Positions 35,226-59,080 of a stretch of DNA of 64,000 bases are shown here, piece after piece. The notes under the pieces are model-generated. The model saw only the letters and a program-made list of their open reading frames with translations, was not told where the DNA came from and did no database searches. The stretch comes from Incurvaria masculella. Lineage: Eukaryota; Arthropoda; Insecta; Lepidoptera; Incurvariidae. Within the stretch, counting starts at the first letter, position 1. Each line of letters opens with the position of its first letter. Location of the stretch: positions 7,006,001 to 7,070,000 of the forward strand of contig OX335657.1 of NCBI GenBank assembly GCA_946894095.1, given 5' to 3'. The translations under genes were made by a program, and so were the position numbers.

Positions 35226-35498
35226 TGTCTGCGCACGCGCAAACCCCATGAGTTCGCGGCCCCCCCGCCCGCATACTTCACCACATCGTCTCCGCCGCTG
35301 CCGCCGCCGCCGCCGCCGCCGCCACTGAACCGCGCGCTATCTCTCGCGAGTTGCCTATGGACACCCAGCTACGTACGACGCCGACATGGCCCGCGCAGCA
35401 GCGACTCAAAAGTTTATTTTGTATATCGGTGTACTATCGAAATAAACATCATCGTTGAAACATTACGAGACCATCATTTCTTTGTTCCTGCGGGGACA
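35226..35498 (+). repeat. BEL/Pao 5' LTR
   Basis: TGTCTG...GGGACA, 273 bp, containing a (CCG)n stretch. The copy in the 3' LTR totals exactly 175 + 98 = 273 bp once the nested insertion and its 4-bp duplication are removed. AATAAA (about 35440) is a plausible poly(A) signal. Confidence 0.95.
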
Positions 35499-35501
35499 AA
35501 A

Positions 35502-35518
35502 TTGGCGACCGTGACAGG
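35502..35518 (+). other. BEL/Pao primer binding site
   Basis: TTGGCGACCGTGACAGG, three bases after the LTR, has the TGGCGACCGTGAC form common in Pao-type elements. I do not assign the tRNA. Confidence 0.8.
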
Positions 35519-36105
35519 ACAAGAAACTACGAAACAAGAATCCATGTGGAGGACACGCGAACCGGCCATTCGGACAAACAAGACACAGGAAGTTACGCCC
35601 GATCCGGTATCTGTATCCCATCCATATTCTTGCCTACAACCTACAACCCGTAAAAATTGGGTTTCGCTTTGCTTCAATTTGCGTAAACGGTTAATTTGCA
35701 TGAAACAATTGCTCAATATTGCTTAAATAAGTTAAAAGAAAAATGTTTGTTCTCTCATAATGTTCTAAACATTACATTAAATTCATTTATACGCTTCCAT
35801 TGGCTAAATTGCTAAATGTATGTACACAAGCTTGCTTTCCTATTCGCTGCATTGAAACAAGAACTCAATCATAGTTAAATCAGTTTAAATTGTTGATGTG
35901 AATCGTCCGACATTTTGTTTACTAGATAGATGCGCGCGCCGCTGCCGCTCGCGCTCGCTGCAGCCGAACCGCCTCGCCGCGCCTGCGCACCGCCATCTAG
36001 CGAGCGAGCCATCTAGGTATATGTATATCAGTGTGTAGGCATATGCGCATTTCAGGTGAGTGAAATTTTACGTGGATTTGCTTGCTTCATTCGTTTTGCT
36101 TTAAA

Positions 36106-36480
36106 ATGGCTTCAGATCTTAAGGATTTAGTTAAGAAGCGTAGCATTATAAAAGGACGTGTCACAGTATTTAAAAACTATTTGCAACATTTGCAAGATTG
36201 CGATTCTCCTAGTAAGGCACAAATAAACGAATTAAGTACCAGATTGAATAAGTTTGAGTTACTGTTTGAAACATTTGATACTACGCAGTCAGAAATTGAG
36301 TTAATTTCCGAAGATTTAGACACACAGGGGCGGGAAAGGGAAGAATTGGAAAACAGTTTTTTCAATTTAATTGGTATTGCGCAAGAATTAGTTGGGCCAA
36401 GTAAAGTTGAGTTGCAACGTCAAATTGATGCAAGCTCAAGCAGTTCGGGCCATACTTCTGCTTGTACAGTAAAAACATAG
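36106..36480 (+). pseudogene. BEL/Pao gag, N-terminal part
   Basis: It starts at the ATG at 36106 (TAAAATGG, good context). It encodes a mostly helical, charged segment (MASDLKDLVKKRSI...) with heptad-like stretches typical of Pao-family Gag N-termini. It stops at 36478-36480 after a run of A bases. The continuing Gag sequence (LPRYDGNYSKW) is in another frame from 36482, so a single frameshift near 36470 separates them. Confidence 0.85.
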
Positions 36481-36481
36481 C

Positions 36482-38863
36482 AATGTTAAGCTGCCAACGA
36501 TAAAATTGCCAAGATATGACGGCAACTACAGTAAGTGGTTAGAGTTCCGTGATACATTTTCTTCGTTGATTCACACGAATCATAATATAGATGAAATCAA
36601 TAAGTTTCATTATCTGAGGGCTTCCTTGGAAGGTAGTGCCTCCTTGGTTATAAGGTCTTTGGAGTTTTCGTGTAAAAATTATGAAGTGGCCTGGCAATTG
36701 CTTTGCGAGAGGTATGACAATAAACGCCAATTGGTTAATAATCATCTTAAGTCATTATTTAGTGTGGAGCCTTTGTCGAAAGAGTCAGATACGTCGTTGC
36801 GATACCTGGTGGATCATGTTTCAAAAAATTTACGAGCCCTCAATACTTTAGGCGAGCCAACTGACAAGTGGGACACTTTGATCATCTACATGGCGGCTAC
36901 GAAGTTGGACGACATAACATCACGTAAGTGGGAGGAGCATAAAAATACAATAAGTAATTCTCCTACGCTAGAGAATTTCTTTAAGTTTCTGCGCAGTCGC
37001 GCTAACATTCTAGAAAGTTTGAGCACAGACAGGAGTAACAAAAGTGATAAACAGGTAATAAACATGGGCAAAGGCCATAAACTAAAAAGATCTTTTGTCA
37101 CTTCTGCTGGTGAAAATAGTGCTACCTGTACTTTGTGCTCGGGTGACCACAGACTATATCAGTGCATTCAGTTTAAAGACATGAGTATCGAGAAGAGAAA
37201 TCATGAAGTATTGAGATTAAAATTATGTTTAAATTGTCTTAAGGGTGGTCACCTCGCACATCAGTGCCACCTAGGTCCATGTAAAATATGCAAAAGGAGA
37301 CACAACACATTATTACATAGAACACATTATAAGAGAGAACAACAAGAACAACAACAACTACAACAACCACAACAACAACCACAACCACAACACCAACAAC
37401 AACAATCACAACACCAACACAAAACAAGTATTGAAACAACACCAGTGTCGTTATCTTCTTATAACACAGAGCAGGTGCTGCTGTCCACAATATTGGTGGA
37501 AGTTGTAAACAAAAGTACAAGTCAGACGGAAATAGTCCGTGCATTATTGGACAGCGGTAGCCAGTCTTCATTTATATCAGATTCTATAAAACAGAAGTTG
37601 AGCTTGTCGTGTGAAACGATAAAACCTATATGTGTATCAGGTATAAACAACGGTGCCCTATCAGTAGAACAACGTTGCAACTTTACAGTGAAATCACGAA
37701 CAAGCTCTTACCAAATGGATTTATCATGTCTGGTTATTCCAAAAATTACAAATAAGTTACCTAGCTGTAGAATAAACCTGCAAGGTCTAAATATACCTTC
37801 AGATTTGACACTTGCGGATCCGAGTTTTCATATTCCCTCAGAAATTAACCTACTGCTTGGGGCTGACGTATTCTGGGATATAATATGTGCACAACAAATA
37901 AAGCTAGGGCGAAACAAACCCATTTTAAATTATTCAAGGTTTGGCTGGCTGGTTGCAGGGCCGATTGGTGGTTTGACAACTGACCGACTGAGCTGTAACT
38001 TTAGTCATGACCAGCTCGCCAAGTTTTGGGAGCTTGAGGAGCTCACCAATCCAGCTTCACATAGTGAGTGGACTGATGAAGAAAAGGCATGTGAAACTCA
38101 TTTTATACAAACATCACGACGTCTCCCCAATGGTAGGTTCAGTGTACACATACCTTTCCGCGATTCTCCGCAATTATTGGGCAAATCATTTGCCACGGCT
38201 GAAAAACGATTTTTATCTCTGGAAAAACGACTAAAAAATAAGCCCGTGGAAAAGAATATGTACACAGAATTCATAAATGAATACGAGCAGTTGGGACACC
38301 TTACAGAAATACCAAGCCTTCCCGAATTTTACTATGTTTTGCCTCACCATGCTGTGATCCGAGACAAGAGTGAGACGACAAAGCTACGAGTGGTCTTTGA
38401 TGCGTCAGCCAAGACGTCATCAGGTGTATCTTTGAATAGTATACAGATGGTAGGTCCAACAGTTCAGGATGACTTGCTATCTATTTTGTTACGATTTCGA
38501 CAGCACAGGTACGTCTTAACTGCCGATATCGAGAAAATGTATCGTCAGATCAGTGTTGGCGAAAGTCAAAGGAACTTACAATTGATTCTATGGAGGGAAG
38601 ATGAAACTCAGCCACTAAGGATCCTACAATTAAATACAGTAACTTACGGTACATCATCTGCACCATTTCTGAGTACTAGGTGTTTGATTCAGCTGGCAGA
38701 TGAATGTACTGACTCGACAATAAAAGAGGTAATTAAACACGATTTTTACATGGATGATTTGCTTACGGGTTCTTCAAGAGTTAAACTATGTTCAACAGTC
38801 AGTCTCGCAAGTGCTATCATCAGCAGGGTTCAATCTGAAAAAATACCGAACAAATGTTTCTGA
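36482..38863 (+). pseudogene. BEL/Pao gag-protease-reverse transcriptase segment
   Basis: In order it encodes the Gag core LPRYDGNYSKWLEFRDTF, a zinc knuckle CLNCLKGGHLAHQC followed by CKICKRRHNTLLH, a Gln/His-rich low-complexity linker (37340-37420), aspartic protease RALLDSGSQSSFIS, and reverse transcriptase with LRVVFDAS and the catalytic FYMDDLL (about 38745-38765). The true frame is lost just after YMDDLL, between about 38770 and 38800, and continues in the segment from 38754. Gag packages the RNA. Protease and reverse transcriptase mature and copy it. Confidence 0.95.
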
Positions 38864-40685
38864 TCAATTAAAATTGATCAATGAACCGAGCAATGAATCG
38901 AATAATAGTAACAAGCAACGCTACGTAAGCAATACACTGAAACAATGTGATAAAAACAAGACAATTGATCAATGTTATGATCAATCAAAAGCTGAACATT
39001 TGTACCTGACTGACCAAGCATCTAGTATCTTAGGATTGGGTTGGACACCTTCAGAAGACCATCTACGTTTCGATATTAAAACTGAAAGTGTCCAACATGT
39101 TACAAAACGTACAATTTTGTCCACTACAGCGCGAATATTTGACCCACTGGGCTTGCTAAGTTTATGTACTATCCGCCCAAAAATTATATTGCAACAATTG
39201 TGGTTAAGTAAACTTGATTGGGACGATCCCATTCCTAACGAAATAAAAACCCAGTGGATCGAATTTTATAATAACCTGCATCATCTTTCATCCCTAATGG
39301 TACCAAGGCACATAATGTGTTCAGACCCTAAGTCCATCGAGTTGCACTCATTTTCCGATGCTTCTGAAGAAGCGTATGGTGCGTGCGTGTACATTCGATG
39401 CGTAGACCGCGACGGCAATGTCACAGTGAAGCTATTATGTGCAAAAGCACGAGTTACGCCACTAAAACCCATGACAGTTCCAAAACTTGAGTTGTGTGGT
39501 GCCTTGCTTTCAGCCCAGCTATGTACAAAGGTAAGCACAGCGCTAAGAACTGAATTTTCACGCTGCGTGCACTGGACTGATTCAATGATAGTGATAGGAT
39601 GGTTGCAAGTTATTACTAAGAAAATGCAAACATTTGTAAAAAATCGTATCGGCCAGATAAGAGAATTAACTGATTCAAAATCATGGAGGCATGTTCCCAC
39701 ATCACAAAACCCAGCTGACTTAGCGTCCAGAGGTTTAAGTCCAGATAAAATTAACGATGCAATTTTGTGGTGGGAAGGCCCTCGTTTTCTGTATGACCCA
39801 GAAGCTAGCTGGCCTGAGCAAAGGTGTTTATTGGAAAAAGATTTACCAGAACTTAAGGTTCATGCAGTTCAAACAGACACGATTGCTAAAATTATCGTGT
39901 TCACAAACTATTCTACCCTTACCAGATTAAGAAGAGTTTTTGCATTTGTACTAAGGTTCATTTTCAACTGTAAAAATAAACAAGGTAAAATCACAGGTCC
40001 TCTGACCAAAATTGAACTCGAGCGATCTCTTCTGTCATTGTCAAGATTATCTCAAAACCAATCATTTACAAGTGAAATAAAAGCATTATCAAAGGGAAAA
40101 GAACTACATTCTAAATCGTCAATATTACCATTGTCGCCCTTCATTGATTCAGAAGGTATCGTTCGAGTGGGTGGACGCATAAAAAACTCACCATTTGAGT
40201 ATTCCAAGAAACATCCAGTACTGTTAGATTCAGACCACCATTTTACAAAGTTGCTGTTTCTACACGAGCATATTCGTCTTATTCATGCAGGTCCTCAACT
40301 TCTATTGTCCACTATTCGGGAAAACTTTTGGCCAATACGAGGTAGGAATCTTGCTCGAAGCACTGTTCGCAACTGCTTGCAATGCAAACGTCTCAAAGGA
40401 GAAACAGTCACGCCTATTATGGGAAACTTACCACCTCAACGTGTTTCACCAGGGTTTGTTTTCCAAACTGTTGGCACCGACTTTGCCGGTCCATTCCTAA
40501 TTAAGGATAAGAAAGGACGTGGTTGTAAGATCACAAAATGTTACCTTTGTGTATTTGTATGTCTGACGACAAAGGCTCTCCACTTGGAAATTGTTAGTGA
40601 CCTAAGCAAGGATGCTTTCATTTTAACGTTAAAACGGTTGATAGCTCGCATGAAATATTTTGCGATAATGGGACAAATTTTGTAG
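38754..40685 (+). pseudogene. BEL/Pao RT end, RNase H and integrase N-terminal part
   Basis: From about 38800 this frame carries LSSAGFNLKKYRTN (RT thumb side), then ILGLGWTP, TARIFDPLGLLS, the RNase H aspartate in HSFSDASEEAYGACVY with VPKLELCGALL and HWTDSMI, and integrase zinc-binding region HEHIRLIHAGPQ...CLQCKRLKG. The catalytic core start VGTDFAGPF follows. The frame ends at 40683-40685. The next catalytic aspartate motif is in the shifted frame, so a frameshift lies near 40645-40670. Confidence 0.93.
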
Positions 40686-41380
40686 GAGCTAGCAATGAAA
40701 TAGGACAGTTTCTAAAGGCCAATAATCGAGATTTCATTGAATATGCGGCCAATAAAGAAATCAAATTTACTTTTTCGCCACCTTATGCGGCAAATTTTAA
40801 TGGTCTGTCTGAAGCTGGCGTTAAGTCAGCCAAAAATCATTTGAAAAGAATATTAGGTAACACTCATTTGACGTTTGAGGAACTCACTACTCTAGTTGCG
40901 CAAATTGAAGCGATTCTGAACTCAAGACCTTTAACTCCTCTCTCATCGGATCCTCACGACCTGTCCCCTCTGACTCCAGGGCACTTCCTGATTGGACGTC
41001 CATTGACATCACTGCCGTCGCCACCTCTGCTGGAGATCAACCCAGGAAGATTAAACCGCTATCGACTTTTAGAACAGTTGCGGCAGCACTTCTGGGTGCG
41101 CTGGCAACAAGAATATCTGGCGGAGCTACAACAGCGCAGCAAGTGGCGCACTCGTCAAGCGGAACTTCGTCAAGGAGACATGGTCCTTATCAAGGAGGAT
41201 CATCTACCGCCTCTCAAGTGGCACCTAGGTCGCATTCACCGTCTGTTTCCAGGCTCTGACGGGGTCTGCAGAGTTGCAGAGGTGATGACTTCAAAGGGCA
41301 TCATCCGGAGAGCATTAAATCGACTATGCCCTCTTTTTCTACAGAACGAGACATCGTCGACGATGAGGTCCAAACATTAA
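40686..41380 (+). pseudogene. BEL/Pao integrase C-terminal part
   Basis: The frame is open from about 40670 without its own start codon. It completes the integrase core (SEAGVKSAKNHLKRILG with the catalytic Glu) and the usual C-terminal block NSRPLTPLSSDP, LTPGHFLIGRPL, HFWVRWQQEYL, VLIKEDHLPPLKWHLGRI. It ends in a stop at 41378-41380. The purine-rich tract AGGGGTGGGCAGGA lies directly before the 3' LTR. Confidence 0.9.
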
Positions 41381-41411
41381 CTTGAAGCCTAGCCTTCAGG
41401 GGTGGGCAGGA

Positions 41412-41586
41412 TGTCTGCGCACGCGCAAACCCCATGAGTTCGCGGCCCCCCCGCCCGCATACTTCACCACATCGTCTCCGCCGCTGCCGCCGCCGCCGCC
41501 GCCGCCGCCACTGAACCGCGCGCTATCTCTCGCGAGTTGCCTATGGACACCCAGCTACGTACGACGCCGACATGGCCCGCGCAGCA
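41412..41586 (+). repeat. BEL/Pao 3' LTR, left part
   Basis: The first 175 bp of the LTR match the 5' LTR and stop at GCGCAGCA, where the nested element begins. Confidence 0.95.
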
Positions 41587-46157: not shown

Positions 46158-46221
46158 CAAAAGAGTCCTGTATGTTGTCTTTTATGATGCGGGGTCCAGG
46201 CTGATGAGAGCGTCATACTGC

Positions 46222-47604
46222 TGTAGCGTCCGCCGCGCCGCCTTATGACGTAACGATACCAGGGGCGAGATTATCTTTTTGCATTGAGTGCGAGACAAGG
46301 ACGCAACGGCATCGCTCCCAGCAAGGTGCGAGCGAGATGCTGCACCGGATCTCGGCACTGGTGCACAAACAGCGCCGTTTGAGTTAAATTCGTTAGACAC
46401 AAGACAAGGACGCAACAGCAGCGCTCCCAGCAAGGTGCAAGCGAGATGCTGCACCGGATCTCGCCACTGGGGCCTTAGCGACGCCGATTGGGAATGTCGA
46501 AACACGCGGCAATCCTCCGCCGCGCCGCCCGCGGGACACGGGCAGAAGCGGGCAGCACCTTGAGACGCACGGTCGCGCCACGTGCTCCGACGAGTGCGGG
46601 TCCCGAGGCCGCGGAGTCAGGCGACATGAACAAAATGTGAAAACTTTCGCTCCCAAAAGTTGGTTGAGCTGTCCGCGTACCACCCTTCGCGAATATCGGC
46701 GCGCCCGCCGTGCCGCCGTGTTCCGTATCCGTGTGAGCAGCCGGGCGTGATCTACTTCGAGGCCACACCCACGCCTTCCGATGTCTTCAGCCCGTGGACC
46801 AGCAGCCACAGCTTCCGCCGTGCCCTGTCACAGTCGCCGGTCCGACATCTTCAACACGTAGACCCACCACCACAGCGTCGCCGTACGCCTGCTGGATCCC
46901 CGCACGGTACCTATACTCTAACGCCAGCCCCCCCGTAGAAATCTACGATGAAACCGCAAAGAGCGTCTATCAGGACCACCCATTGAAGCAGGACACCGCC
47001 CATTCGACTACGCACGACCTCGGACCCACCCCGAGCTCCCGGCATGGAACCCCGGCCATTTGGATATTAGGTTAGGCTAAGGCCGTGTTAGAACACCGCC
47101 TTGATTGTTAATTATTTATAGTCTTCTTTGTGCTTCTAAATATAGGCTATTTTAGGTAGATGGTTAGATCGCCACAGCCCAATTTTCTTAATTTGTAGGT
47201 GTCTTAAATAGGACAATGCCAGGGTGTATTTTTGATTGTCTGTTTGTGTTTTGTGCCTCAAATGGTCTATAATTTATTACATCTTTTTTGTACCTACTGT
47301 AGTCTGTTAATTCGCTATTCATCGATTCCCTACAAATTCACCCATTCCCAACCTGTGAACAGCCTCCCCCACACGCTGCAGAGCTGCCACCAAGTACATT
47401 CATGAGATCCCTCCTCTACACATCACACTTTATACACCGGCGTAACCACCTGGATATCTTGTAGCCTAATTAAATTACAACGAACCACCGGAAGATCCCT
47501 GGGCCCTTGAAACCCTATATATGTCTGTCGGTCTGTCCGTGGCAACCACTCCTACTTACTCATTTCTTCTAATGCATCACACCCTTTAAATTAAAAAGGC
47601 TACA
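46222..47604 (+). repeat. Gypsy 5' LTR
   Basis: TGTAGCGTC...AAGGCTACA, 1,383 bp. It contains two imperfect 109-bp direct repeats (GACAAGGACGCAAC at 46294 and 46403) in a GC-rich 5' half. The open frames seen here on both strands recur only because the LTR recurs and have no domains. Confidence 0.95.
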
Positions 47605-47621
47605 ATTGGCACCCGAACTGG
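47605..47621 (+). other. Gypsy primer binding site
   Basis: ATTGGCACCCGAACTGG directly after the LTR. It is the expected tRNA-complementary site, but the tRNA is not assigned. Confidence 0.75.
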
Positions 47622-48391
47622 TTTATTTTAATTTCCTATTTGTATATATTAATTATATTTATTTTATTATGGTACGCCTCACTTGTTTTATACACTACAA
47701 ATTAACTCTCCATTTCAGCCCTGACGGTAAGCAAATAGCGAATTAACAAAACTGAATATTAAATGTGTCAATAACGAGTTGTGTCCACCAACGTAATAGG
47801 TATATAGGTACTTACGCACGTTATTTCATTTTAGAATATCGAGTCTTGCAATAGCGCACGAAGGCGGTAACTCTCGCTCTTATAGGTGTGCACTGTTTCC
47901 TTAGGTTTTTAGGTCATCATATATTGGAAGCCGAGAGCAGAGCATATTCTTTGTCTTTCTCTCATTTCTTATAAATATAGCTTATAGCACGTTGCGCGTG
48001 GACAAATCGCGAGCACGTGAGCACGCGACCGGCCAGTCCCGCGATCCGGAACTTCTTGGGTTAGTATGAAACAACGAAATATAAAAAACTGAAATGTGCT
48101 GTTTCATTTAAGTGTATAATTTTATGTGTTCTTGATGCTTATGTATTGTGTGTGTAAATAACGTGTGTGAAATTTTTTTTTCTTCTCGCTTTATTCTCTT
48201 GCGTTGAACACGTAGGTTATATTTGGAAGTCAGGTTAACTACGTGCTTATTGTTAATCACTCGTTAAAACAAACCTTAATCTGTAGTTATCAGGCTTTCG
48301 TCTCGTTCGATCTAGTCGCGTGTCGCGTTAACGGAAATTTACGTAATTTTTTTTTAACTCATTTTAAGTAAGTTATTATAGGTACTACAAA
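47622..48391 (+). other. Gypsy 5' leader
   Basis: A 770-nt untranslated leader between the primer site and gag. No long ORF. The packaging signal is expected here but not identifiable. Confidence 0.6.
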
Positions 48392-49735
48392 ATGGAAAGC
48401 CAGGACCATTCCGTGTGCATTGACATGCCAGAGGACCAATTAATGATGTATGACAATCAATCCATAAATTCACAGTCGGAGGTTAATGTTGTAACACGTA
48501 GTGGTGGTGATTATGGACCCAGTTTTTTTTCCTTGGATAACGAATCCAACCAGTCATCTTCAAGTACCGTGGTAAAACCAGAAGGTCTCCACGAAAATTG
48601 TGTGTTCAATAAACATTACTACAACTTATCGTCCTGGAATCTAAAATATAGTGGTGAAACAGATGTACGTGAATTCATTGCCCGTGTCGAAGAGCTTACT
48701 TATGCGCGGAAATCTAACTATGACATCGTACTGAGATGTTTCATTGATTTGTTGTCGGGCACCGCTTTGAAATGGTTCCGTACCGTGAGGGATGGAGTTA
48801 CGAATTGGGACCAGCTTAAGAAAGCCTTGTTAGAGGAGTACGATAATATCGACTACGTTTTCGACACGGAATCCCGTATTCGCTCGTTAAAACAAAAACC
48901 TAACCAGAAGTTGTCAGATTTTGTAACAGATGTGAATGATTTGGCAAATAAAATCAAGGGTCAAATTTCCGATATCATGCTTTTCGAAATAATAAAACGA
49001 AATATGTTACCTAAGTACAATCAATGTCTGATTTACGGTACGATTAAAAATACTTGCGACCTTCTGGCGTATGGTAAGAAAGTTGAACGTTTTAATAATG
49101 AGGCCCCCTTCAGTAATATCAAATCAGAGGTGTCCAAAGTTAACAGTTATATTCCTAAAGCCGAGACAGTGTCGACTTCAAACACAAACGCTTGTCTCAA
49201 ATGTAAAAATACGGGCCATTCTTTTAAAAACTGCCCGAATATTTTAATACCTATCTGCTTTGACTGCGGCAAGCTAAATGTCACGTCCAAAAATTGTCCC
49301 ACATGTGCCGCGAAAGATAATCAAAATTCGAGGTCTACGCCTCAGCCCCACTCTCGGTTCACATCTCGTGCTGAAGTGTCACACCCACGCAGCGGACAAC
49401 AATACCCGCCGTGGTTTAACAATAATGCAGGCCAATTTAGTGTTAGGCAACAGAATCCTCCAACTTATATTAACAACGCCAACAATAATAATTTTAATGG
49501 CGGTCAACATCCTCGTTTTAGGCCAGTCTATTCAGGCCAATACAATAACTCTTACCGTCCTAGGGGTCAACAATACCGACCTTATTATCCGAACGCGAGT
49601 CACCCCCCGGCGACTCACTTTCACTCATCGAACTACGCCGATAGCGCACGCGAGCTGCCGCATAACAATATTCGAGCGATCGAGGCCCCCCCATCCCCCC
49701 CTCAATCTTCCGCTTCTCATACAAAAAACAGGTAA
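48392..49735 (+). CDS. Gypsy Gag polyprotein
   Basis: An intact frame of 447 residues with ATG in good context (AAAATGG). The middle carries the capsid-like retrotransposon Gag core (YSGETDVREFIARVEEL, LSGTALKWFRTV, about residues 85-135). A CCHC zinc knuckle, CLKCKNTGHSFKNC, starts at about residue 268, and a second Cys-rich motif without the His, CFDCGKLNVTSKNCPTC, at about 289. The tail is rich in Asn, Pro, Arg and Tyr. Gag assembles the particle and binds RNA. The last codons overlap the -1 slippery site, so a minority of ribosomes should continue into pol. Confidence 0.95.
   Translation: MESQDHSVCIDMPEDQLMMYDNQSINSQSEVNVVTRSGGDYGPSFFSLDNESNQSSSSTVVKPEGLHENCVFNKHYYNLSSWNLKYSGETDVREFIARVEELTYARKSNYDIVLRCFIDLLSGTALKWFRTVRDGVTNWDQLKKALLEEYDNIDYVFDTESRIRSLKQKPNQKLSDFVTDVNDLANKIKGQISDIMLFEIIKRNMLPKYNQCLIYGTIKNTCDLLAYGKKVERFNNEAPFSNIKSEVSKVNSYIPKAETVSTSNTNACLKCKNTGHSFKNCPNILIPICFDCGKLNVTSKNCPTCAAKDNQNSRSTPQPHSRFTSRAEVSHPRSGQQYPPWFNNNAGQFSVRQQNPPTYINNANNNNFNGGQHPRFRPVYSGQYNNSYRPRGQQYRPYYPNASHPPATHFHSSNYADSARELPHNNIRAIEAPPSPPQSSASHTKNR
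49723..49729 (+). promoter_or_regulatory. -1 ribosomal frameshift site A AAA AAC
   Basis: The heptamer is in phase with gag (aca-AAA-AAC-agg-taa), one codon before the gag stop at 49733. Slipping back one base gives an open frame from CAG at 49729 straight into protease. It fits the X XXY YYZ rule used by many retroelements. A downstream stem or pseudoknot is expected but was not worked out. Confidence 0.88.
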
Positions 49736-51225
49736 ACGCACCGGCGACTTATACCTCCTCGGAAGAATGGCATGACTGGTTAAAATTTGTTCATGACTTT
49801 CCGAAAGTTAGCCCGGTGCTATCAAACCAACATGGCGATAGGAGGCCTTACGTTCATTTCAAGTTAAATAATAAGGATTTTACAGCTCTATTAGATAGTG
49901 GAGCCGAGATAAATGTGTTTGGTAATAATTCACATCTTGAAATACTGAATATGGGATATACTTTAGACGAGTCCAAAATTTGTTCCGCCTCTACGGCAGA
50001 CGGGACTAAACAATTTAGTCCAGGCTCAATCCATTGTAATATCGTGGTCGACGGCATTGAAATTCCACTTACTTTTGAAGTTATTCCAGAAATTAAATCT
50101 GATTGCATTTTAGGCACAGAATTTTGGGAAAAGTCCGGTCTATCAAAAAAAATTTCCGGCTGTATAAATAAAAAAATCACTTTCCCCATTCCGTCAGAAT
50201 TTCAGATTTCTTCATTTAACATTGATGGGGCCATTAAAAAAATTAAAGATATTATTTCCAGCTTAGATATCATTAAAAGTAAAATTTCTAGCTTTAACAG
50301 CCCCCGTTCGAGCAAACATTATAAGTTGTTGGATGAATCACTTACTAAGTTATTGTTAGCTTTGGACGACATTCCGTCTAATAATAACCCGGACATTAAG
50401 TCGGCCCGCAAAATAGCCGTCGCTTCTGTGCAAGAGTCAATAGATGTCTTAGAACGCAAAGCGTATCGGCCGAATTCTCCCCCGCCCACCCTCCCTACGT
50501 ACGTGCCGCTCGCGTCGGTCGGTGAAACCAAGCCTTCTTCCGGAGCGCTCAATGCCACACATCGCGCTCAGAGCGCACAGCCCCCGCATTCTGTTTCTAA
50601 CGCGCAACAGCTGCATTCTATTTCTAACTCGAGTAATTGTAAACTTTCTCCAGATGAACAATTAATATTAAATAAAACGATAGAAAAGTTTGAGTCCATA
50701 TCTTTTGAAAAATGTGGCCTAGGTCGAACGCATCTTCTTGAATATGAAATTGATACGGAAGGTCCTCCAATCAAACAAAGGTTCTATCGCATGTCACCCT
50801 ACAAACAAAAGTTAGTGGACCAATTAATAGATGAAATGATAGACTTGGATGTTCTGGAACCATCATCGTCACCCTGGGCCAGTCCTGTGTTAGTAGTACC
50901 CAAGAAGGACAACTCCTTCCGCCTTTGCATGGACTCTCGTAAACTAAACGCTGTTACAAAAAAATGTAGTTATCCTCTCCCTCGCATAGATAACATTCTT
51001 GATAATTTAAAGGACGCAAAATATATTTCTTCCATTGACTTATCTAAGGCATTTCTTCAGCTCCCTCTGGCAGAATCGGCTAAGGAAAAGACAGCGATTA
51101 TCTCACAGGGCCGAGGCTTATTACAATTTAAGGTGGTCCCTTTTGGGCTATCTAACGCACCCCAGAATTTACAACGCCTGGTCGATGCGTTACTAAAACA
51201 GTTTTGCCAATCGATATCACATTGA
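49729..51225 (+). pseudogene. Gypsy Pol, N-terminal part (protease and start of RT), truncated
   Basis: It is entered by -1 frameshift from gag. It encodes aspartic protease FTALLDSGAEINVFG (catalytic Asp near codon 27 counted from 49816), a ~170-residue linker, and the start of reverse transcriptase (SPWASPVLVVPKKD, LCMDSRKLNAVT, SIDLSKAFLQLPL, PFGLSNAPQ). At 51195 the pol sequence is replaced by the element's own 3' region and the frame ends at 51225, before the catalytic YLDD. Polymerase, RNase H and integrase functions are therefore missing from this product. Confidence 0.92.
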
Positions 51226-51884
51226 TGTAAAGATTATCATTAGTAACATTTTGGTTAGCTTCAGTATTAATTATTACTTTTGCACTGTCAATTATAGTTC
51301 AGCAATTAATGTTATAGTCACTGTGACATTCTGGTCACTTTGTTAAATGTCTAGGGTACTTAAATTCTTTTTTTTTTTTGCTTGTTTTTTTTTGTTTTTT
51401 AAGTAACCGGGTATTATAGCGTCCGCCGCGCCGCCTTATGACGTAACGATACCAGGGGCGAGATTATCTTTTTGCATTGAGTGCGAGACAAGGACGCAAC
51501 GGCATCGCTCCCAGCAAGGTGCGAGCGAGATGCTGCACCGGATCTCGGCACTGGTGCACAAACAGCGCCGTTTGAGTTAAATTCGTTAGACACAAGACAA
51601 GGACGCAACAGCAGCGCTCCCAGCAAGGTGCAAGCGAGATGCTGCACCGGATCTCGCCACTGGGGCCTTAGCGACGCCGATTGGGAATGTCGAAACACGC
51701 GGCAATCCTCCGCCGCGCCGCCCGCGGGACACGGGCAGAAGCGGGCAGCACCTTGAGACGCACGGTCGCGCCACGTGCTCCGACGAGTGCGGGTCCCGAG
51801 GCCGCGGATTCAGGCGACATGAACAAAATGTGAAAACTTTCGCTCCCAAAAGTTGGTTGAGCTGTCCGCGTACCACCCTTCGCG
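51194..51884 (+). repeat. Misplaced copy of the gypsy 3' region and LTR start inside pol
   Basis: 691 bp match 57401-58092: ~220 bp from just before the 3' LTR plus the first 470 bp of the LTR. The visible differences are one T in a T run and LTR base 2, where TG becomes TA (51416). It carries T at the LTR position where the two LTRs differ, like the 3' LTR. The junctions have 2-bp microhomology (TA on the left, CG on the right). After it, pol resumes 465 bp upstream of where it stopped. Confidence 0.92.
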
Positions 51885-54458
51885 CATCTTCTTGAATATG
51901 AAATTGATACGGAAGGTCCTCCAATCAAACAAAGGTTCTATCGCATGTCACCCTACAAACAAAAGTTAGTGGACCAATTAATAGATGAAATGATAGACTT
52001 GGATGTTCTGGAACCATCATCGTCACCCTGGGCCAGTCCTGTGTTAGTAGTACCCAAGAAGGACAACTCCTTCCGCCTTTGCATGGACTCTCGTAAACTA
52101 AACGCTGTTACAAAAAAATGTAGTTATCCTCTCCCTCGCATAGATAACATTCTTGATAATTTAAAGGACGCAAAATATATTTCTTCCATTGACTTATCTA
52201 AGGCATTTCTTCAGCTCCCTCTGGCAGAATCGGCTAAGGAAAAGACAGCGATTATCTCACAGGGCCGAGGCTTATTACAATTTAAGGTGGTCCCTTTTGG
52301 GCTATCTAACGCACCCCAGAATTTACAACGCCTGGTCGATGCGTTACTACCAGGTGCAGAATTCGATGACCATGTGTTTGGTTATCTAGACGACCTAATT
52401 ATAATTTCCAACAATTTTGCAGACCATATTTCTTACCTTGACAAAGTTTACGAACGTTTACATTTCGCTAACCTAACAGTTAACCTAAAGAAGTGTGAAT
52501 TTCTAAAATCTGAGCTGAAATATCTTGGTTACGTTATAAACGAGTTCGGCTTAAAGACTGACCCAGCCAAAGTGGAGGCAGTGAAAAACTTTCCAACACC
52601 CAAATGTGTCAAAGATGTACGCAGTTTCTTAGGACTAGCTTCCTACTACCGCCGTTTCATCAAAAATTTCTCTACTATTGCGGCGCCCCTGTCCAATCTC
52701 ACAAGTTCCATCTCTGAAAAATATTCAAAATTTAATTGGACACCTGAGGCAGAGGCAGCCTTCGTAAAATTAAAATCCGCCCTCACTTCAGCCCCAGTTT
52801 TATGTGTTCCCAATTTTGAAGCCCCCTTTTTCCTCCACTGTGATGCAAGTTTAGTGGGAATTGGTTCAGCAGTTGTACAAAAGGACGCAAATTTTCAGGA
52901 ACACCCCGTAGCTTACTATTCGAGAACGCTAACAAAACAAGAGCAAGGTTTTTCTACCACCGAAAGGGAATTACTTAGTATTGTGGAAGCTACCACACAT
53001 TTTAGACATTACCTAGAAGGAACTCATTTCACGATTGTGACTGACCATGAAAGCTTGAAATGGTTATATAAACTCGAGAACCCCACGGGCAGGCTCGCCC
53101 GTTGGTCTACTAGGCTCTCGCAATTCTCCTTTGATATCGTCCACAAGAAAGGCAAACTCCATGTTGTCCCGGACGCGTTGTCACGTATTAAGATCGAAAG
53201 TGTAAACTCATCCAACCCAAACGTTCCTATAACTGATGAGTGGTTTTTGAAAATAAAAAATAGTATACAAAAATCACCCGCTAGTTACCCGAACTTTAGG
53301 TTGGAAGACGATAAGCTCTTTCGTTTTTGCAAACCTAAATTCAATCTTTTAAATTCATTTTCATGGAAAGAAGTTATTCCCGCTGACCATATTAAACAGC
53401 TAGTAACTGCTACTCACGAGAGCCCTCTATCGGCACACCTTGGCCCATTTAAATGTTTTAAAAAGTTACAACTGAATTATTACTGGCCCAACATGTTTCC
53501 TTCAATCAAATCAATCTTAAGTTCGTGTGAAGTTTGTTTGGCATTTAAAGCTAATAATCAGCTACCCCATGGTAAAATGTTATTTCAGAAGAAGGTCTAC
53601 GCTCCAATGCAAACATTAAGTTGCGATCTCATTGGTCCTCTGCCGAGGTCTTATTCAGGACACGCATACTTGCTTACTGTAGTTGACATTTTCTCCAAAT
53701 TTGTATGGTTATGCCCACTTAGAAAAGCCAATAGTAAGTCAATAATTAAATTCATTGAAAATGAGATTTTCCTAGTCTATGGCGTGCCATATTGTATGAT
53801 AAGTGATAATGGCGTGCAGTTCGTCTCTAACGAGTTTCAGGCACTTTTAAAAAGGTATAATATCCCTAAATTTTTCAAAAATTGTGTCTATTTCCCACAA
53901 AACAATCCAGTGGAAAGACACAATCGTACCATTGAATTAGCCATTGCTTCTTATGTTGAGACAGACCATAGAAACTGGACTAAAAATTTACCTAAGATTC
54001 AGGCAGCTTTAAATAGCCATGTCAGCTTAGCCCATGGGTTTTCACCCAATTTTGTAATGACAGGTAGAGAACTCATCTTCGATGGTCGATTCCATAAATT
54101 TGCAGATTTCACTAAATTAGAGGAGTTAATTATCGATGGTCGCGACGAATGGACCACTAGCTTAAAATCATTGGCAAGCGTTTTTCATCAAATCCAAGCG
54201 AACCTGACTCAAGCATATCAAGCTAATGCCAAACGCTACAACCTTCGTCGTTCAGTGATACATTTCAATGTAGGTGACATAGTCTGGCGTCGATCCCATG
54301 TTCAATCGGACGCCGCTAAATTCTTTTCAAATAAATTAGCCCCTCGTTTTATTAAATCTGTGGTCCTTGAGAAAAAATCTGAAAATACATACATTTTGGG
54401 CAACATGGATGGTTCCAAGGCAGGCCTAATACATGTGAGTGATATTATTAAATACTAA
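51885..54458 (+). CDS. Gypsy Pol, RT-RNase H-integrase part
   Basis: 51885-52349 repeats 50731-51195 exactly as far as read, then pol continues uninterrupted. From the ATG at 51945 (837 codons): RT with FGYLDDL (Y147-D150), RNase H with FFLHCDAS (D300) and TDHESLKWL, integrase zinc-binding HLGPFKCF...CEVC, and catalytic D561, D621, E657, which gives an exact DD35E spacing. It ends at 54456-54458. The domains look intact, but this part is cut off from gag and protease, so it could be translated only by internal initiation. Confidence 0.93.
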   Translation, partial: HLLEYEIDTEGPPIKQRFYRMSPYKQKLVDQLIDEMIDLDVLEPSSSPWASPVLVVPKKDNSFRLCMDSRKLNAVTKKCSYPLPRIDNILDNLKDAKYISSIDLSKAFLQLPLAESAKEKTAIISQGRGLLQFKVVPFGLSNAPQNLQRLVDALLPGAEFDDHVFGYLDDLIIISNNFADHISYLDKVYERLHFANLTVNLKKCEFLKSELKYLGYVINEFGLKTDPAKVEAVKNFPTPKCVKDVRSFLGLASYYRRFIKNFSTIAAPLSNLTSSISEKYSKFNWTPEAEAAFVKLKSALTSAPVLCVPNFEAPFFLHCDASLVGIGSAVVQKDANFQEHPVAYYSRTLTKQEQGFSTTERELLSIVEATTHFRHYLEGTHFTIVTDHESLKWLYKLENPTGRLARWSTRLSQFSFDIVHKKGKLHVVPDALSRIKIESVNSSNPNVPITDEWFLKIKNSIQKSPASYPNFRLEDDKLFRFCKPKFNLLNSFSWKEVIPADHIKQLVTATHESPLSAHLGPFKCFKKLQLNYYWPNMFPSIKSILSSCEVCLAFKANNQLPHGKMLFQKKVYAPMQTLSCDLIGPLPRSYSGHAYLLTVVDIFSKFVWLCPLRKANSKSIIKFIENEIFLVYGVPYCMISDNGVQFVSNEFQALLKRYNIPKFFKNCVYFPQNNPVERHNRTIELAIASYVETDHRNWTKNLPKIQAALNSHVSLAHGFSPNFVMTGRELIFDGRFHKFADFTKLEELIIDGRDEWTTSLKSLASVFHQIQANLTQAYQANAKRYNLRRSVIHFNVGDIVWRRSHVQSDAAKFFSNKLAPRFIKSVVLEKKSENTYILGNMDGSKAGLIHVSDIIKY

Positions 54459-54713
54459 AAAAAAAAATTAATTAAAACTTTTGTTGAACTGGTTTGCATT
54501 TCTTTGATATATTTGGTCATAAATTTAAACAATAACTTTAAGTAACAATAAGTTACAAAATTTTTAAATGGTTAAATTCTCTATTAAATTGTATCTTGTG
54601 TCACACGCCCTAAAAAGGAGCCAGGTGTCAAGGGATACATGGATGACGGTAATTCTTGGAGAAGTTTTTTTAGTAAAACAAGCTATACTCCAATAGTTAG
54701 GTTAGGGTCGGTC

Positions 54714-55340
54714 GTGCGCGGTTGTTTTTTTTGGAATATTTTTCGAACGCACGTTAATATCTAAAGCCTTATTGAAAAAATATCCCGTGAACGGTATTGG
54801 CAAGGGAATTCACGTTAATAAATAAAAAGCCCTATCCTTGCTCACGGACGGTTACGTGGGAATCCGTGTTATAAATCTAAGCCTTATCCCGCATCTAGGT
54901 GTTCGGTCACAAATCATGCCGACACACTACCTAGGTTAGATTCGTTTTGGTATGTTTATTTAAGTTTTAGTATATGTCTTGTTCTTGGAAAATTTTGTCT
55001 TTGGAAAAAAATATATTTTGTCTTTTAAAAAAAAAAATGTGCTTGTGTCACAATGTACTATTGGGTACACGTGTGTCCTGGGCGATATGGAACGCGGTCG
55101 AGTTAACGTTCTTTGTTATAAATTAAAGCCTTATCGACTCACCGGTGCGCGGTTTTTTATGGTATTTTTGAAACGCACGTTAAACGCCCAAGCCTTATTC
55201 AAAATATCCCGCAGGACGGTTTGTTGAGAATCCTGCGTAGCAAAAATAAAGCCTTATCTCTCAAACTTATGTGTACGGTCACTCTTGTGTCGTCACAGCT
55301 GGAGGCGGTTGTAGAACCTCCATATAAATATAAGCCTTAT
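54714..55340 (+). ncRNA. Array of seven covarying stem-loop units (CGGT...GAA / AAGCCTTAT)
   Basis: Units: 54714-54772, 54787-54835, 54843-54887, 55090-55134, 55145-55198, 55210-55257, 55301-55340. Each has a 5-7-bp stem, CGGT at the 5' side of the loop, GAA or TAA at its 3' side, the paired stem strand, a 10-16-nt AT-rich spacer and AAGCC(T/C)TAT. Stems are GTGCG, GTGAA, ACGGA, GAACG, GTGCG, CAGGA and GGAGG, each perfectly paired. A looser eighth unit may lie at 54895-54935. Conserved loop edges with changing but paired stems indicate an RNA structure under selection, perhaps a packaging, export or protein-binding element. The role is inference. Confidence 0.8.
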
Positions 55341-56662
55341 CTACACTCCACATTGTTCGAATCCGTTAAAATCAGTTCGACAAATTCTTAGTTAGGTTAG
55401 GGTCTTTCACAGACGTCCGCGAAGCAAACCAGCCTCGCGTTCGTCGGGTTTTTTTTTCTTCTCTCTCTTTCTTTTACCTCCACCTCACTTAACCTCACCC
55501 CTCACCCTATTCCCTAGCAAGCTTGCGCCCTCCCACCCTAACACCAACCACCTTACCCAACCCAGTATGATAGATAATTTAAAAGAAAGGATACGACAGG
55601 ATAAGTGAATGATGATGTAAGCAAGTGGTTCCTACCCTTTTCCCCATATCTGTCCTCTGTCACTAGTAAGTGGTCTCAACCGAGTCACTTACGTAGACAA
55701 GGCATACAGCGCATTCACCGCGCTTTATTTTATGTTAGTTCTTTTGGTTATTCTCTATTTTTTTTTCTCTTTTCTTTTTTTTTTCTTTTAACAGCTATAG
55801 TGTACTGTAACGGGCAACACGTCGCGTCAGACACGTTCAGCTGAAAACACATAATGGTGTATTTCGTGATAGATGCCGCCTCCCATGAGGGGGGCAAAAT
55901 TCTATAGAATCTCTAGGTGCAGGCCATACCCCATTTAACGCTTCTCGACAGGCGGTGCACTAGGCACCTACCTAGGGCCAAGATGAGACACGAGACAGTT
56001 CGCGTGTCTTGATCTGAAGGGGTTTTACGAGTTCTCACTCTGAGGCTCACCAATTACAACCAGTTTTTTTATGTTAAGTCGGCATAATAAGACTGGTTGG
56101 GTTGCATTATTTAGTTTTAAGTTCCAAACAACCATACCCTCCCAACACATGTTCTCTGTACATACCTGTATATAAAAATACTTATAAGTCGTATTTAGAT
56201 AAAATTTACTCTAGGTAAGAACAAGGATATGACATTTATAAAGCGTCCCTTATAAAAAGGCACTTATTATTTTGGATTTTGAGCGTCTACGGGTTAAATG
56301 TTAATGACGTTTCCCATAGGATTCTATTCGGTTAATGTAAACCATTTTGAAGACTGCTGAGTCTTATTTGCCAAATCATTTCATGTGTCTCAAAACGCGT
56401 TCGTGAGTGTTGGTAAAACTTTCGTATTAATTGTACAATTGTAAATATTGCTAATTTTAGTTTAAACTTAAAATTAATTTATAGGCGCACAATAGCGACC
56501 AATAAGAGTAGGAACTCTAAATAAATATGGCATAGTGAGCCACTGAACATATAAACTCTCGGAAAGACAAAATTAAACACGGATTTTGAGAAAATTCAAA
56601 TTGTATTAAGATATAAACATGCTAATTATATAAATACAATTAAAATACTTAAGCGTAGGTAC

Positions 56663-56692
56663 TTAGTTAGTTAGTTAGTTAGTTAGTTAGTT
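56663..56692. repeat. (TTAG)n microsatellite
   Basis: Seven TTAG units. It is not the insect telomere repeat TTAGG. Confidence 0.9.
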
Positions 56693-56821
56693 CGCGTTCA
56701 GAGTGACACATCTTAAGTAGGATGTCGCTAGACACATTATAGTATTTAGAAAGTATACGGAATGTTAGAAATATAATGTCCGGAACACACAGTGGTTCCT
56801 ACTATCGCTTTAATAATGCTG

Positions 56822-57190
56822 GTGGACACAACTTCGCTTAATAATGTTTTCTCATACTTGTCTTAATCCTTATTATTGAAAATACACTCAAGGACAAAAC
56901 TTCCTTTATTGATGTTTTTTTTTTTCTTAAATTATTTGTCTTAATTCTTATTATCGAAAGTACACTCATAGATACAACTTCTTTAGTGATGTTTATTTTT
57001 ATACGTATCTCAATTTTCCTTATTATTGAAAGTACACTCAAGGACACAACTTGTTCTCTTTATGCCTTGCTTTTCTTGTTTTTATTTAAAAAAAAAAGAC
57101 ATTCATGAATATAATTTCGGCTAGTAATGTTTCTTCTCATACTCGTCTTATACTTTTTATTAATAATGAAAGTCAACTTAAAGGATATAA
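56822..57190. repeat. ~80-bp diverged tandem repeats
   Basis: About five units share CTTATTATTGAAA, GTACACTCAAGGACACAACTT and a T-rich stretch, with spacing 73-85 bp. Confidence 0.8.
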
Positions 57191-57622
57191 GTCATTGGGC
57201 TGTGGCTTCCATAGGATTGTAAATATGTGTTAGCTTGTACATGTGTGTAAATATTTTACTGATTGATAAAAATGTTACTTATATGTTAATGTCATAACAC
57301 TGTGTTCGATATTAATTCTATTTCTGTTGTCATTTAGATGTTTTAGCATTCCATTGGGCTTGGCTTATAGTATTGTAAACCTGTTGAATGTCTAGAAATT
57401 TAAAACAGTTTTGCCAATCGATATCACATTGATGTAAAGATTATCATTAGTAACATTTTGGTTAGCTTCAGTATTAATTATTACTTTTGCACTGTCAATT
57501 ATAGTTCAGCAATTAATGTTATAGTCACTGTGACATTCTGGTCACTTTGTTAAATGTCTAGGGTACTTAAATTCTTTTTTTTTTTTTGCTTGTTTTTTTT
57601 TGTTTTTTAAGTAACCGGGTAT

Positions 57623-59005
57623 TGTAGCGTCCGCCGCGCCGCCTTATGACGTAACGATACCAGGGGCGAGATTATCTTTTTGCATTGAGTGCGAGACAAG
57701 GACGCAACGGCATCGCTCCCAGCAAGGTGCGAGCGAGATGCTGCACCGGATCTCGGCACTGGTGCACAAACAGCGCCGTTTGAGTTAAATTCGTTAGACA
57801 CAAGACAAGGACGCAACAGCAGCGCTCCCAGCAAGGTGCAAGCGAGATGCTGCACCGGATCTCGCCACTGGGGCCTTAGCGACGCCGATTGGGAATGTCG
57901 AAACACGCGGCAATCCTCCGCCGCGCCGCCCGCGGGACACGGGCAGAAGCGGGCAGCACCTTGAGACGCACGGTCGCGCCACGTGCTCCGACGAGTGCGG
58001 GTCCCGAGGCCGCGGATTCAGGCGACATGAACAAAATGTGAAAACTTTCGCTCCCAAAAGTTGGTTGAGCTGTCCGCGTACCACCCTTCGCGAATATCGG
58101 CGCGCCCGCCGTGCCGCCGTGTTCCGTATCCGTGTGAGCAGCCGGGCGTGATCTACTTCGAGGCCACACCCACGCCTTCCGATGTCTTCAGCCCGTGGAC
58201 CAGCAGCCACAGCTTCCGCCGTGCCCTGTCACAGTCGCCGGTCCGACATCTTCAACACGTAGACCCACCACCACAGCGTCGCCGTACGCCTGCTGGATCC
58301 CCGCACGGTACCTATACTCTAACGCCAGCCCCCCCGTAGAAATCTACGATGAAACCGCAAAGAGCGTCTATCAGGACCACCCATTGAAGCAGGACACCGC
58401 CCATTCGACTACGCACGACCTCGGACCCACCCCGAGCTCCCGGCATGGAACCCCGGCCATTTGGATATTAGGTTAGGCTAAGGCCGTGTTAGAACACCGC
58501 CTTGATTGTTAATTATTTATAGTCTTCTTTGTGCTTCTAAATATAGGCTATTTTAGGTAGATGGTTAGATCGCCACAGCCCAATTTTCTTAATTTGTAGG
58601 TGTCTTAAATAGGACAATGCCAGGGTGTATTTTTGATTGTCTGTTTGTGTTTTGTGCCTCAAATGGTCTATAATTTATTACATCTTTTTTGTACCTACTG
58701 TAGTCTGTTAATTCGCTATTCATCGATTCCCTACAAATTCACCCATTCCCAACCTGTGAACAGCCTCCCCCACACGCTGCAGAGCTGCCACCAAGTACAT
58801 TCATGAGATCCCTCCTCTACACATCACACTTTATACACCGGCGTAACCACCTGGATATCTTGTAGCCTAATTAAATTACAACGAACCACCGGAAGATCCC
58901 TGGGCCCTTGAAACCCTATATATGTCTGTCGGTCTGTCCGTGGCAACCACTCCTACTTACTCATTTCTTCTAATGCATCACACCCTTTAAATTAAAAAGG
59001 CTACA
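57623..59005 (+). repeat. Gypsy 3' LTR
   Basis: 1,383 bp, the same length as the 5' LTR, with one visible substitution (58017 T against 46616 G). It is followed by the CTGC target duplication. Confidence 0.95.
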
Positions 59006-59080
59006 CTGCCATCAAGGTTAAAGTTCATATTTCTTGAGATTTAACCGAAAGTGTTGACAGACAAAATTCAATAAAAACAC

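What the first reader, a model, noticed from the sequence alone, without database searches (positions are those of the whole stretch)
54714..55340. Seven tandem stem-loops with perfect stem covariation in a retrotransposon 3' region
The units share CGGT at the loop start, GAA/TAA at the loop end and AAGCC(T/C)TAT downstream. The stems GTGCG, GTGAA, ACGGA, GAACG, CAGGA and GGAGG differ and each is paired by its own complement (three extend to 6-7 bp). Loop length varies from about 8 to 29 nt. Covariation with fixed loop edges means the RNA fold, not the DNA sequence, is conserved. I know of no named gypsy element or RNA family with this form. Roles to consider are dimerisation/packaging, nuclear export, Gag or host protein binding, or translational control of the genomic RNA.
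Basis: partly seen in the sequence, partly recalled or inferred. Interest (0 to 1): 0.92.

Follow-up and report, generated by a model that had tools for sequence, protein, structure and literature searches.

The report
Tandem RNA pseudoknots in a retrotransposon
The non-coding tail of a young insect-type retrotransposon carries seven small RNA knots in a row whose two stems keep pairing while their letters change, so the RNA shape is what is kept; the same design, with other letters, is found in a sister element, and its job is not yet known.

Summary
The window holds a Ty3/gypsy LTR retrotransposon (LTRs 99.9% identical). Its 3' non-coding region has seven units, each with a 5-7 bp stem, CGGT at the loop start and AAGCC[CT]TAT downstream. 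Only the own partners give full stem pairing (2 of 5040 permutations tie; two units share a stem). Each unit is therefore an H-type pseudoknot; its invariant letters should meet at the junction of the two stems (inferred). In the same genome a sister subfamily (pol 79% identical in DNA) has a different array in which the stems are kept with other letters, clearly in some units, weakly in others. Rfam has no match in the array. The closest analogues are the upstream pseudoknot domain of tobacco mosaic virus and, by position, retroviral transport elements. I think it is a multivalent protein-docking platform acting on export, stability or translation of the genomic RNA. The fold rests on sequence evidence; the function is inference.

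The parts
46222..47604 (+). 5' LTR (TG...CA); flanking target-site repeat CTGC at 46218-46221 and 59006-59009
48392..49735 (+). gag ORF with two Cys-rich (zinc-knuckle-like) motifs (motif call by eye)
51945..54458 (+). RT/RNase H/integrase ORF; its stop is 255 nt before unit 1
54641..54693 (+). degenerate unit U0: S2 TTGGAG/CTCCAA kept, S1 decayed (in 12 other loci a form of S1 is held by G-U pairs)
54713..54779 (+). pseudoknot U1: S1 54713-54718/54748-54753; S2 54739-54746/54772-54779; CGGT 54719; AAGCCTTA 54764-54771
54786..54842 (+). pseudoknot U2: S1 54786-54791/54809-54814; S2 54799-54806/54835-54842
54843..54892 (+). pseudoknot U3: S1 54843-54848/54863-54868; S2 54856-54861/54887-54892
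54895..54934 (+). long plain hairpin B1 (no AAGCC)
55089..55140 (+). pseudoknot U4: S1 55089-55094/55107-55112; S2 55100-55104/55136-55140 (weakest S2, 5 bp)
55145..55204 (+). pseudoknot U5: S1 55145-55149/55174-55178; S2 55166-55172/55198-55204
55210..55264 (+). pseudoknot U6: S1 55210-55216/55231-55237; S2 55224-55229/55259-55264
55270..55297 (+). plain hairpin B2, similar to B1
55300..55345 (+). pseudoknot U7: S1 55300-55305/55317-55322; S2 55310-55315/55340-55345
57623..59005 (+). 3' LTR, 2278 nt after U7

Best explanation
The array is a cis-acting RNA element in the 3' non-coding region of the genomic RNA of a Ty3/gypsy retrotransposon: seven H-type pseudoknots, in two runs of contiguous or nearly contiguous units. 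Each unit reads S1 (5-7 bp) - CGGU.. - S2 (5-8 bp) - one or two A - S1' - AU-rich spacer - AAGCCYUA - S2'. Shown here by sequence evidence: both stems pair within each unit with changing letters, and the same design with other letters exists in a sister subfamily. Inferred from H-type geometry: CGGU (just after S1) and AAGCCYUA (just before S2') lie together at the S1/S2 junction, perhaps with a GG-CC contact, so every unit shows the same face on helices of different sequence. Inferred function: a multivalent docking platform. Seven identical faces bind several copies of one RNA-binding protein, most likely a host factor that promotes export, stability or translation of the full-length RNA, in the manner of the tobacco mosaic virus upstream pseudoknot domain or of retroviral transport elements, of which one described example sits in the same place.
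For: S1: 35 of 35 inner pairs, 2 of 5040 permutations tie. S2: duplex energy and pair count of own partners are the unique best of 5040 permutations; 46 pairs against at most 37 in 20000 base shuffles. With four sister units added (11 units): S2 64 pairs, maximum of the sampled permutations 60; S1 55 of 55, maximum 49; 0 of 100000 sampled permutations reach either (swaps of identical S1 stems would tie but were not drawn). The four sister units alone: own order is the single best of 24 for S2 (18 pairs; next 17) and for S1 (20 of 20; next 17). The third unit of sister L070 against U3: three S1 pairs and two S2 pairs change on both sides, and one S2 pair changes on one side (T-G to T-A). U4 against its counterpart in L077: two S1 pairs change on both sides, and S2 has different letters, still paired. 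In L098 unit 2 both S2 strands are one base longer than in the window. Array DNA is 89.5% and 90.8% identical between subfamilies over 181 and 163 bp, while pol is 79%. In 40 same-family copies (the window's own among them) core sites vary at 2 of 263, other sites at 15 of 345 (p 0.011). Position between the last ORF and the 3' LTR matches a described transport element (PMC11379458, abstract and passages). [quoted passage not shown]
Against: No binding, probing or expression data; the protein partner is a guess. Nested folding gives no excess stability; competition of S1 with S2 could explain this, but no pseudoknot energy model was run. A test for strand by G-U against A-C pairs does not decide (46 against 47 S2 pairs). 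S2 is weak in part: U4 has 5 pairs; of the four sister units only sA beats every foreign strand; sB (5, best foreign 6) and sC (3, best foreign 6) do not, sD (4) and U5 (7) tie. U0 has lost S1, so units do decay. The 89-91% identity of the array could come partly from recombination between subfamilies. The five variable sites at 54707-54711 may be few events, which weakens the p of 0.011. The CGGU-AAGCC contact does not vary and so has no covariation support.
Confidence: 0.42

Rival explanations
1. The pseudoknots are Gag-binding sites for packaging or assembly: seven copies of an exposed GG-bearing junction bind the zinc knuckles of nucleocapsid.
For: Gag carries Cys-rich knuckle-like motifs (by eye); the array is part of the genomic RNA; repeated identical faces suit assembly. 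For avian sarcoma/leukosis virus a packaging defect from 3' untranslated mutations is cited in PMC3856414 (reference title seen).
Against: Packaging signals usually lie near the 5' end (recalled). The constant letters are a long motif (CGGU plus AAGCCYUA), more than a knuckle needs. Not tested.
Confidence: 0.22
2. The units block 5'-to-3' decay by Xrn1 (xrRNA-like), leaving a stable 3' RNA.
For: Tandem pseudoknots in a 3' region; xrRNA_D also joins variable stems and a variable pseudoknot to near-invariant loop letters, and two of three nucleotides just upstream of the 3' pseudoknot strand are conserved (PMC6299227, passages), as AAGCCYUA is here.
Against: xrRNA_D has two helices, P1 and P2, besides the pseudoknot; here there is one. 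No xrRNA family among Rfam matches at E<=10 in 2.5 kb. Seven blocks in one RNA would be unusual.
Confidence: 0.14
3. The units are a new self-cleaving or ligand-binding RNA: a small conserved core at the junction of two variable helices, like pistol or preQ1 (resemblance recalled).
For: About 12 nearly invariant unpaired letters at one junction, free variation elsewhere.
Against: Seven cleavage sites would destroy the genomic RNA; no ribozyme or riboswitch family among Rfam matches at E<=10; an insect retroelement is an odd place for a riboswitch.
Confidence: 0.06
4. The repeats are a DNA feature or neutral tandem repeats that pair by chance.
For: The scored copies within the family are 97-100% identical, so they say little; nested folding is unremarkable.
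Against: Two crossing helices with compensated changes among units and in a sister subfamily; double-stranded DNA binding needs no such pairing.
Confidence: 0.03

Closest known systems
Upstream pseudoknot domain (UPD) of tobacco mosaic virus and relatives
   Same: Pseudoknots in the 3' untranslated region of a plus-sense RNA; the source reports that the TMV domain stimulates translation in a way replaceable by a poly(A) tail (PMC5382211, passages). Binding of eEF1A to it is the title of a cited paper (reference list of PMC12847506). That the UPD is three consecutive pseudoknots, and furoviruses have more, is recalled.
   Different: A retrotransposon RNA, not a plant virus; 2.3 kb from the 3' LTR; no tRNA found in the window; no Rfam match in the array. 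The conserved sequence reported for those pseudoknots (Leathers 1993, title only) could not be compared: the paper is not held.
Retroviral constitutive/RNA transport elements (CTE, RTE)
   Same: Structured RNA that acts in cis on unspliced RNA; [quoted passage not shown]
   Different: Known CTE binding of TAP/NXF1 is to a structured stem-loop (PMC3856414, passages), not to tandem pseudoknots; no binding tested here.
xrRNA_D (dianthovirus-type Xrn1-resistant RNA)
   Same: Helices and pseudoknot supported by covariation, near-invariant loop letters, conserved letters just before the 3' pseudoknot strand (PMC6299227, passages).
   Different: Two helices P1/P2 there, one here; plant viral RNAs there; tandem here.

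Membership tests
Ty3/gypsy LTR retrotransposon (host element) | LTRs, gag, PR-RT-RNase H-integrase order | tested here: met
   RT/RH before integrase in ORF 51945-54458; among the 120 relatives listed the one with an organism name is from Plutella xylostella, 49%
H-type pseudoknot | loop of hairpin S1 pairs with the downstream strand (S2) | tested here: met
   sequence evidence only, no probing
Upstream pseudoknot domain (UPD) | consecutive pseudoknots in a 3' untranslated region | tested here: met
   linkers of 6, 0, 4 and 5 nt within runs; the two other gaps (196 and 35 nt) hold hairpins B1 and B2
Upstream pseudoknot domain (UPD) | directly upstream of a tRNA-like 3' end | tested here: not met
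   array ends 2278 nt before the 3' LTR; ARAGORN finds no tRNA (run with bacterial settings, and it does not model viral tRNA-like ends)
Upstream pseudoknot domain (UPD) | conserved sequence of that family | not tested
   paper not held
xrRNA_D | helices P1 and P2 plus pseudoknot | tested here: not met
   one stem besides the pseudoknot stem
xrRNA_D | resists Xrn1 | not testable with these tools
   needs an enzyme assay
CTE/RTE transport element | position between last ORF and 3' LTR (as in the example) | tested here: met
   array 54713-55345, pol stop 54458, LTR 57623
CTE/RTE transport element | exports unspliced RNA | not testable with these tools
   needs a reporter assay
Any Rfam 15 family | covariance-model match | tested here: not met
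   window 54000-56500 at E<=10: one hit, mir-630 at 55631-55545 on the - strand, outside the array, 17.7 bits against a gathering score of 90; whole window at gathering: 0; L096 and L098 at E<=1: four hits, all below gathering. Rfam models hold no pseudoknots (recalled)

The most novel reading that the evidence does not exclude
A class of RNA motif not described before, one compact pseudoknot with a nearly invariant two-part junction core (CGGU plus AAGCCYUA) between freely evolving helices, used in tandem by a lineage of insect-type retrotransposons as a multivalent handle for host or Gag protein: a tandem-pseudoknot strategy in a retroelement, known so far (as far as I recall) mainly from plant RNA viruses.
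Probability: 0.4. Interest if true: 0.8.

Novelty: new variant of a known kind. Interest (0 to 1): 0.66.

Why it matters
Long 3' non-coding regions of LTR retrotransposons are often left unexplained (my impression). Here one contains a structured RNA with two covarying, crossing helices per unit and a near-constant core, in many closely similar copies of the genome (40 scored of 161 candidates), and, by nucleotide identity, its first 160-180 bp are conserved better than the polymerase gene between two subfamilies. It gives a testable handle on how such elements get their genomic RNA exported, translated or packaged, and a defined motif for searching other insect genomes.

Tried and rejected
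Viral contigs: a two-unit motif scan gave 12 loci; those with many AAGCCYTAT (L001, L003, L006) look like CRISPR repeat arrays. Hits to a looser unit scan occur in four of the 12 (L002, L008, L010, L012; L008 is a simple GGTTCCA-type repeat), and none holds the tandem units. Pol in viral contigs: no locus with the single protein, one distant relative (L013, 33%) with the alignment, which has no units. Gag in the protein database: none at E<=0.001 among 1679 candidates. Pistol- and twister-like resemblances came to mind (recalled) and are not supported by Rfam. The CGGU-AAGCC contact is invariant in pairing letters and so untestable by covariation. Strand choice by G-U pairs was inconclusive. 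The pattern of two AAGCCTTAT at other spacings found 3 family copies, 8 places of a 34-bp minisatellite without CGGT, and one other place. Six loci of other gypsy families of the same genome (L066-L069, L090, L093) show no such units by the scan within about 1.5 kb past the matched pol piece; the looser scan gives only a hit on the opposite strand of L090 (two loci share it). Papers: ten searches; others returned none, and 71, 91, 98 and 118 showed 15 of 103, 15 of 19, 8 of 26 and 8 of 19. By title and start of abstract none listed is about tandem pseudoknots in an LTR retrotransposon. That is no proof of absence from print. Passages were also seen in PMC10976276 and PMC8503643; they add nothing decisive.

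Counting notes: one search counted S1, CGGT, GAA and AAGCCYTAT as core (1 of 196 core sites against 21 of 455, p 0.007); one search recounted with S2 included and homopolymer runs set aside. Both counts include the window's own copy twice (as reference and as L014). Rows against: a U6 S2 change in L060 shortens S2 to 4 pairs (L060 was not among the 40); in L043 a U4 change turns A-T into G-T; in L077 a U1 S1 change turns G-C into G-T; L073 lacks the third unit by the scan; the loose pseudoknot scan also gives chance hits (10 in five shuffles of the window, one strand; in the window 10 on + and 6 on -).

Full report
WHAT THE ELEMENT IS. The window lies in a 552-Mb genome of 31 contigs that is not named. 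At 46222-59005 sits a Ty3/gypsy LTR retrotransposon: LTRs 46222-47604 and 57623-59005 are 99.93% identical over 1383 bp with CTGC on both sides. Gag is at 48392-49735, a protease/RT piece at 49816-51225 and RT/RNase H/integrase at 51945-54458. Among the 120 Pol relatives listed (of 4430 scored E<=0.001) the one with an organism name is from Plutella xylostella, at 49%, which fits a lepidopteran host but does not prove it. The region of the finding lies 255 nt after the pol stop and ends 2278 nt before the 3' LTR.

CHECK OF THE OBSERVATION. Seven units were found by an explicit scan. Each has 5-7 pairs around a loop that begins CGGT (the five inner pairs are Watson-Crick in all seven, 35 of 35), and each has AAGCC[CT]TAT downstream; the window has no other copy of that 9-mer on either strand. 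Re-dealing the 3' arms among units gives 21.4 pairs on average and reaches 35 in 2 of 5040 orders, because two units share a stem. RNAalifold on a plain MAFFT alignment finds the stem, with both-sides changes in 5 of 5 predicted pairs; three of the pairs are broken in one sequence, which I put down to U4 being misaligned there. A covariance model of the seven has no further hit below E=3 in the window.

THE SECOND STEM. Folding single units with their 3' flank showed the loop pairing with the letters after AAGCCYUA. Tested directly: duplex energies of loop against own downstream strand sum to -55.9, the lowest of all 5040 pairings (mean -31.2). With the strands anchored (0-3 nt before S1', 0-3 nt after AAGCCYUA) own pairs number 8, 8, 6, 5, 7, 6 and 6, in sum 46; the permutation mean is 25.6 and no other order reaches 46; 20000 base shuffles reach at most 37. 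S1 and S2 cross, so each unit is an H-type pseudoknot: S1, CGGU.., S2, one or two A, S1', an AU-rich spacer, AAGCCYUA, S2'. Units follow each other with linkers of 6, 0, 4 and 5 nt; two larger gaps (196 and 35 nt) hold plain hairpins B1 and B2. That the nested fold is no better than shuffles, with four of seven S1 stems at 0.04 or less, fits a competition between S1 and S2, which nested folding cannot show together; I did not run a pseudoknot energy model.

RELATIVES. A DNA search of the own genome scored 40 of 161 candidates, all 97-100% identical, the window's own copy among them. In these 40, homopolymer runs set aside, S1 varies at 0 of 84 sites, S2 at 1 of 87, CGGT at 0 of 27, AAGCCYTA at 1 of 56, and the sites outside the core at 15 of 345; core against other 2 of 263 against 15 of 345, Fisher p 0.011. 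A search with a Pol relative (44 of 2412 candidates scored, 30 loci fetched) gave a sister subfamily of ten loci (L070-L079); pol of L070 and L077 is 79% identical in DNA and 88% in protein to the window's. Their arrays begin with the same two units but go on differently. The third unit of L070, in the position of U3, has S1 CGCAGGA/TCCTGCG and S2 GTGATA/TATCAC: against U3 three S1 and two S2 pairs change on both sides and stay paired. L077 and its like have further units, one of them the counterpart of U4 by flanking sequence, with two S1 pairs changed on both sides and an S2 of other letters. In L098 the S2 of unit 2 is one base longer on both strands than in the window. Eleven distinct units taken together: S2 64 pairs against a maximum of 60, S1 55 of 55 against 49, 0 of 100000 sampled permutations reach either (orders that swap identical S1 stems would tie but were not drawn). 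Taken one by one the sister evidence is uneven: the four sister units alone have their own order as single best of 24 for both stems, but of the four only sA beats every foreign strand in S2; sD ties, and sB (5 against 6) and sC (3 against 6) do not; sC has 4 pairs when the register is let slip by one. The first 160-180 bp of the array are 89.5% (L070) and 90.8% (L077) identical to the window's, more than pol at 79%, while most of the remaining 3' region does not align; selection or recombination could do this.

DECAY. A unit U0 upstream of the array (54641-54693) keeps S2 (TTGGAG/CTCCAA) but has lost S1 in the window; in 12 other loci an S1 is held with G-U pairs, and its counterpart in L070 has both stems (GGAAGA/TCTTCT and TGGGG/CCCCA). 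So units can die, which makes the upkeep of the other seven more telling.

MECHANISM. What is nearly constant is unpaired: CGGU at the start of the loop (CGGA in two sister-type units) and AAGCCYUA just before S2' (varied in its last letters in sister units). In an H-type pseudoknot with one or two nucleotides between S1 and S2 both stretches lie at the junction (inference from geometry). Seven such faces on helices of free sequence suggest one ligand bound many times. I hold a host RNA-binding protein acting on export, stability or translation to be the likeliest (0.42 for the whole statement), because the element sits where a transport element of a retrovirus is described (PMC11379458, abstract and passages) and because pseudoknots in a viral 3' region are reported to stimulate translation (PMC5382211, passages). 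Gag binding, a block to Xrn1, and a catalytic or ligand-binding RNA are the rivals, in that order. None has been tested.

NOVELTY. Rfam has no match in the array at E<=10 or in the window at gathering; in two sister loci four hits lie below gathering scores. Ten paper searches list nothing that by title or abstract start is about tandem pseudoknots in an LTR retrotransposon (several lists were capped). Pseudoknots in a 3' region are known from plant viruses; the motif, its core and its host are new as far as these searches go.

Noticed in passing
window 49816-51225: A BAG domain (PF02179, 42.8 bits, residues 153-214) lies between protease and reverse transcriptase of the Pol ORF, unusual for a gypsy element as far as I recall; one paper search found nothing on it.
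   Followed up: partly
window 50729-52349: Pol of this copy is interrupted: a 691-bp piece 99.7% identical to 57401-58092 (end of the 3' region plus start of the LTR) sits at 51194-51884 between two identical 467-bp stretches.
   Followed up: no
window 56867-57087: A second tandem repeat of 72-78 bp in the same 3' non-coding region, two or three diverged copies, with possible hairpins by eye.
   Followed up: no
window 54694-54709 and 55389-55404: An identical 16-mer TAGTTAGGTTAGGGTC flanks the array on both sides.
   Followed up: no
G000:C8:16602737-16684005: At least 13 copies of the sister array lie on contig C8 at a mostly regular spacing of about 5.36 kb, so part of a sister element seems amplified in tandem.
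   Followed up: no
L055-L058, L061, L063-L065: A minisatellite with a 34-bp unit that begins AAGCCTTATTCAATATAAAGG occurs in several places; its matched stretches hold no CGGT and it is probably unrelated.
   Followed up: partly
window 35226-41586: A BEL/Pao-type element (DUF1759, Pao peptidase) bounded by identical 175-bp direct repeats.
   Followed up: no
window 57560-57622: No purine-rich tract is seen just before the 3' LTR, where a polypurine tract is expected; the stretch is T-rich.
   Followed up: no
window 54895-54934 and 55270-55297: Two similar plain hairpins (B1, B2) stand in the gaps of the array; a comparable hairpin follows the fourth unit in L077 (by eye).
   Followed up: partly
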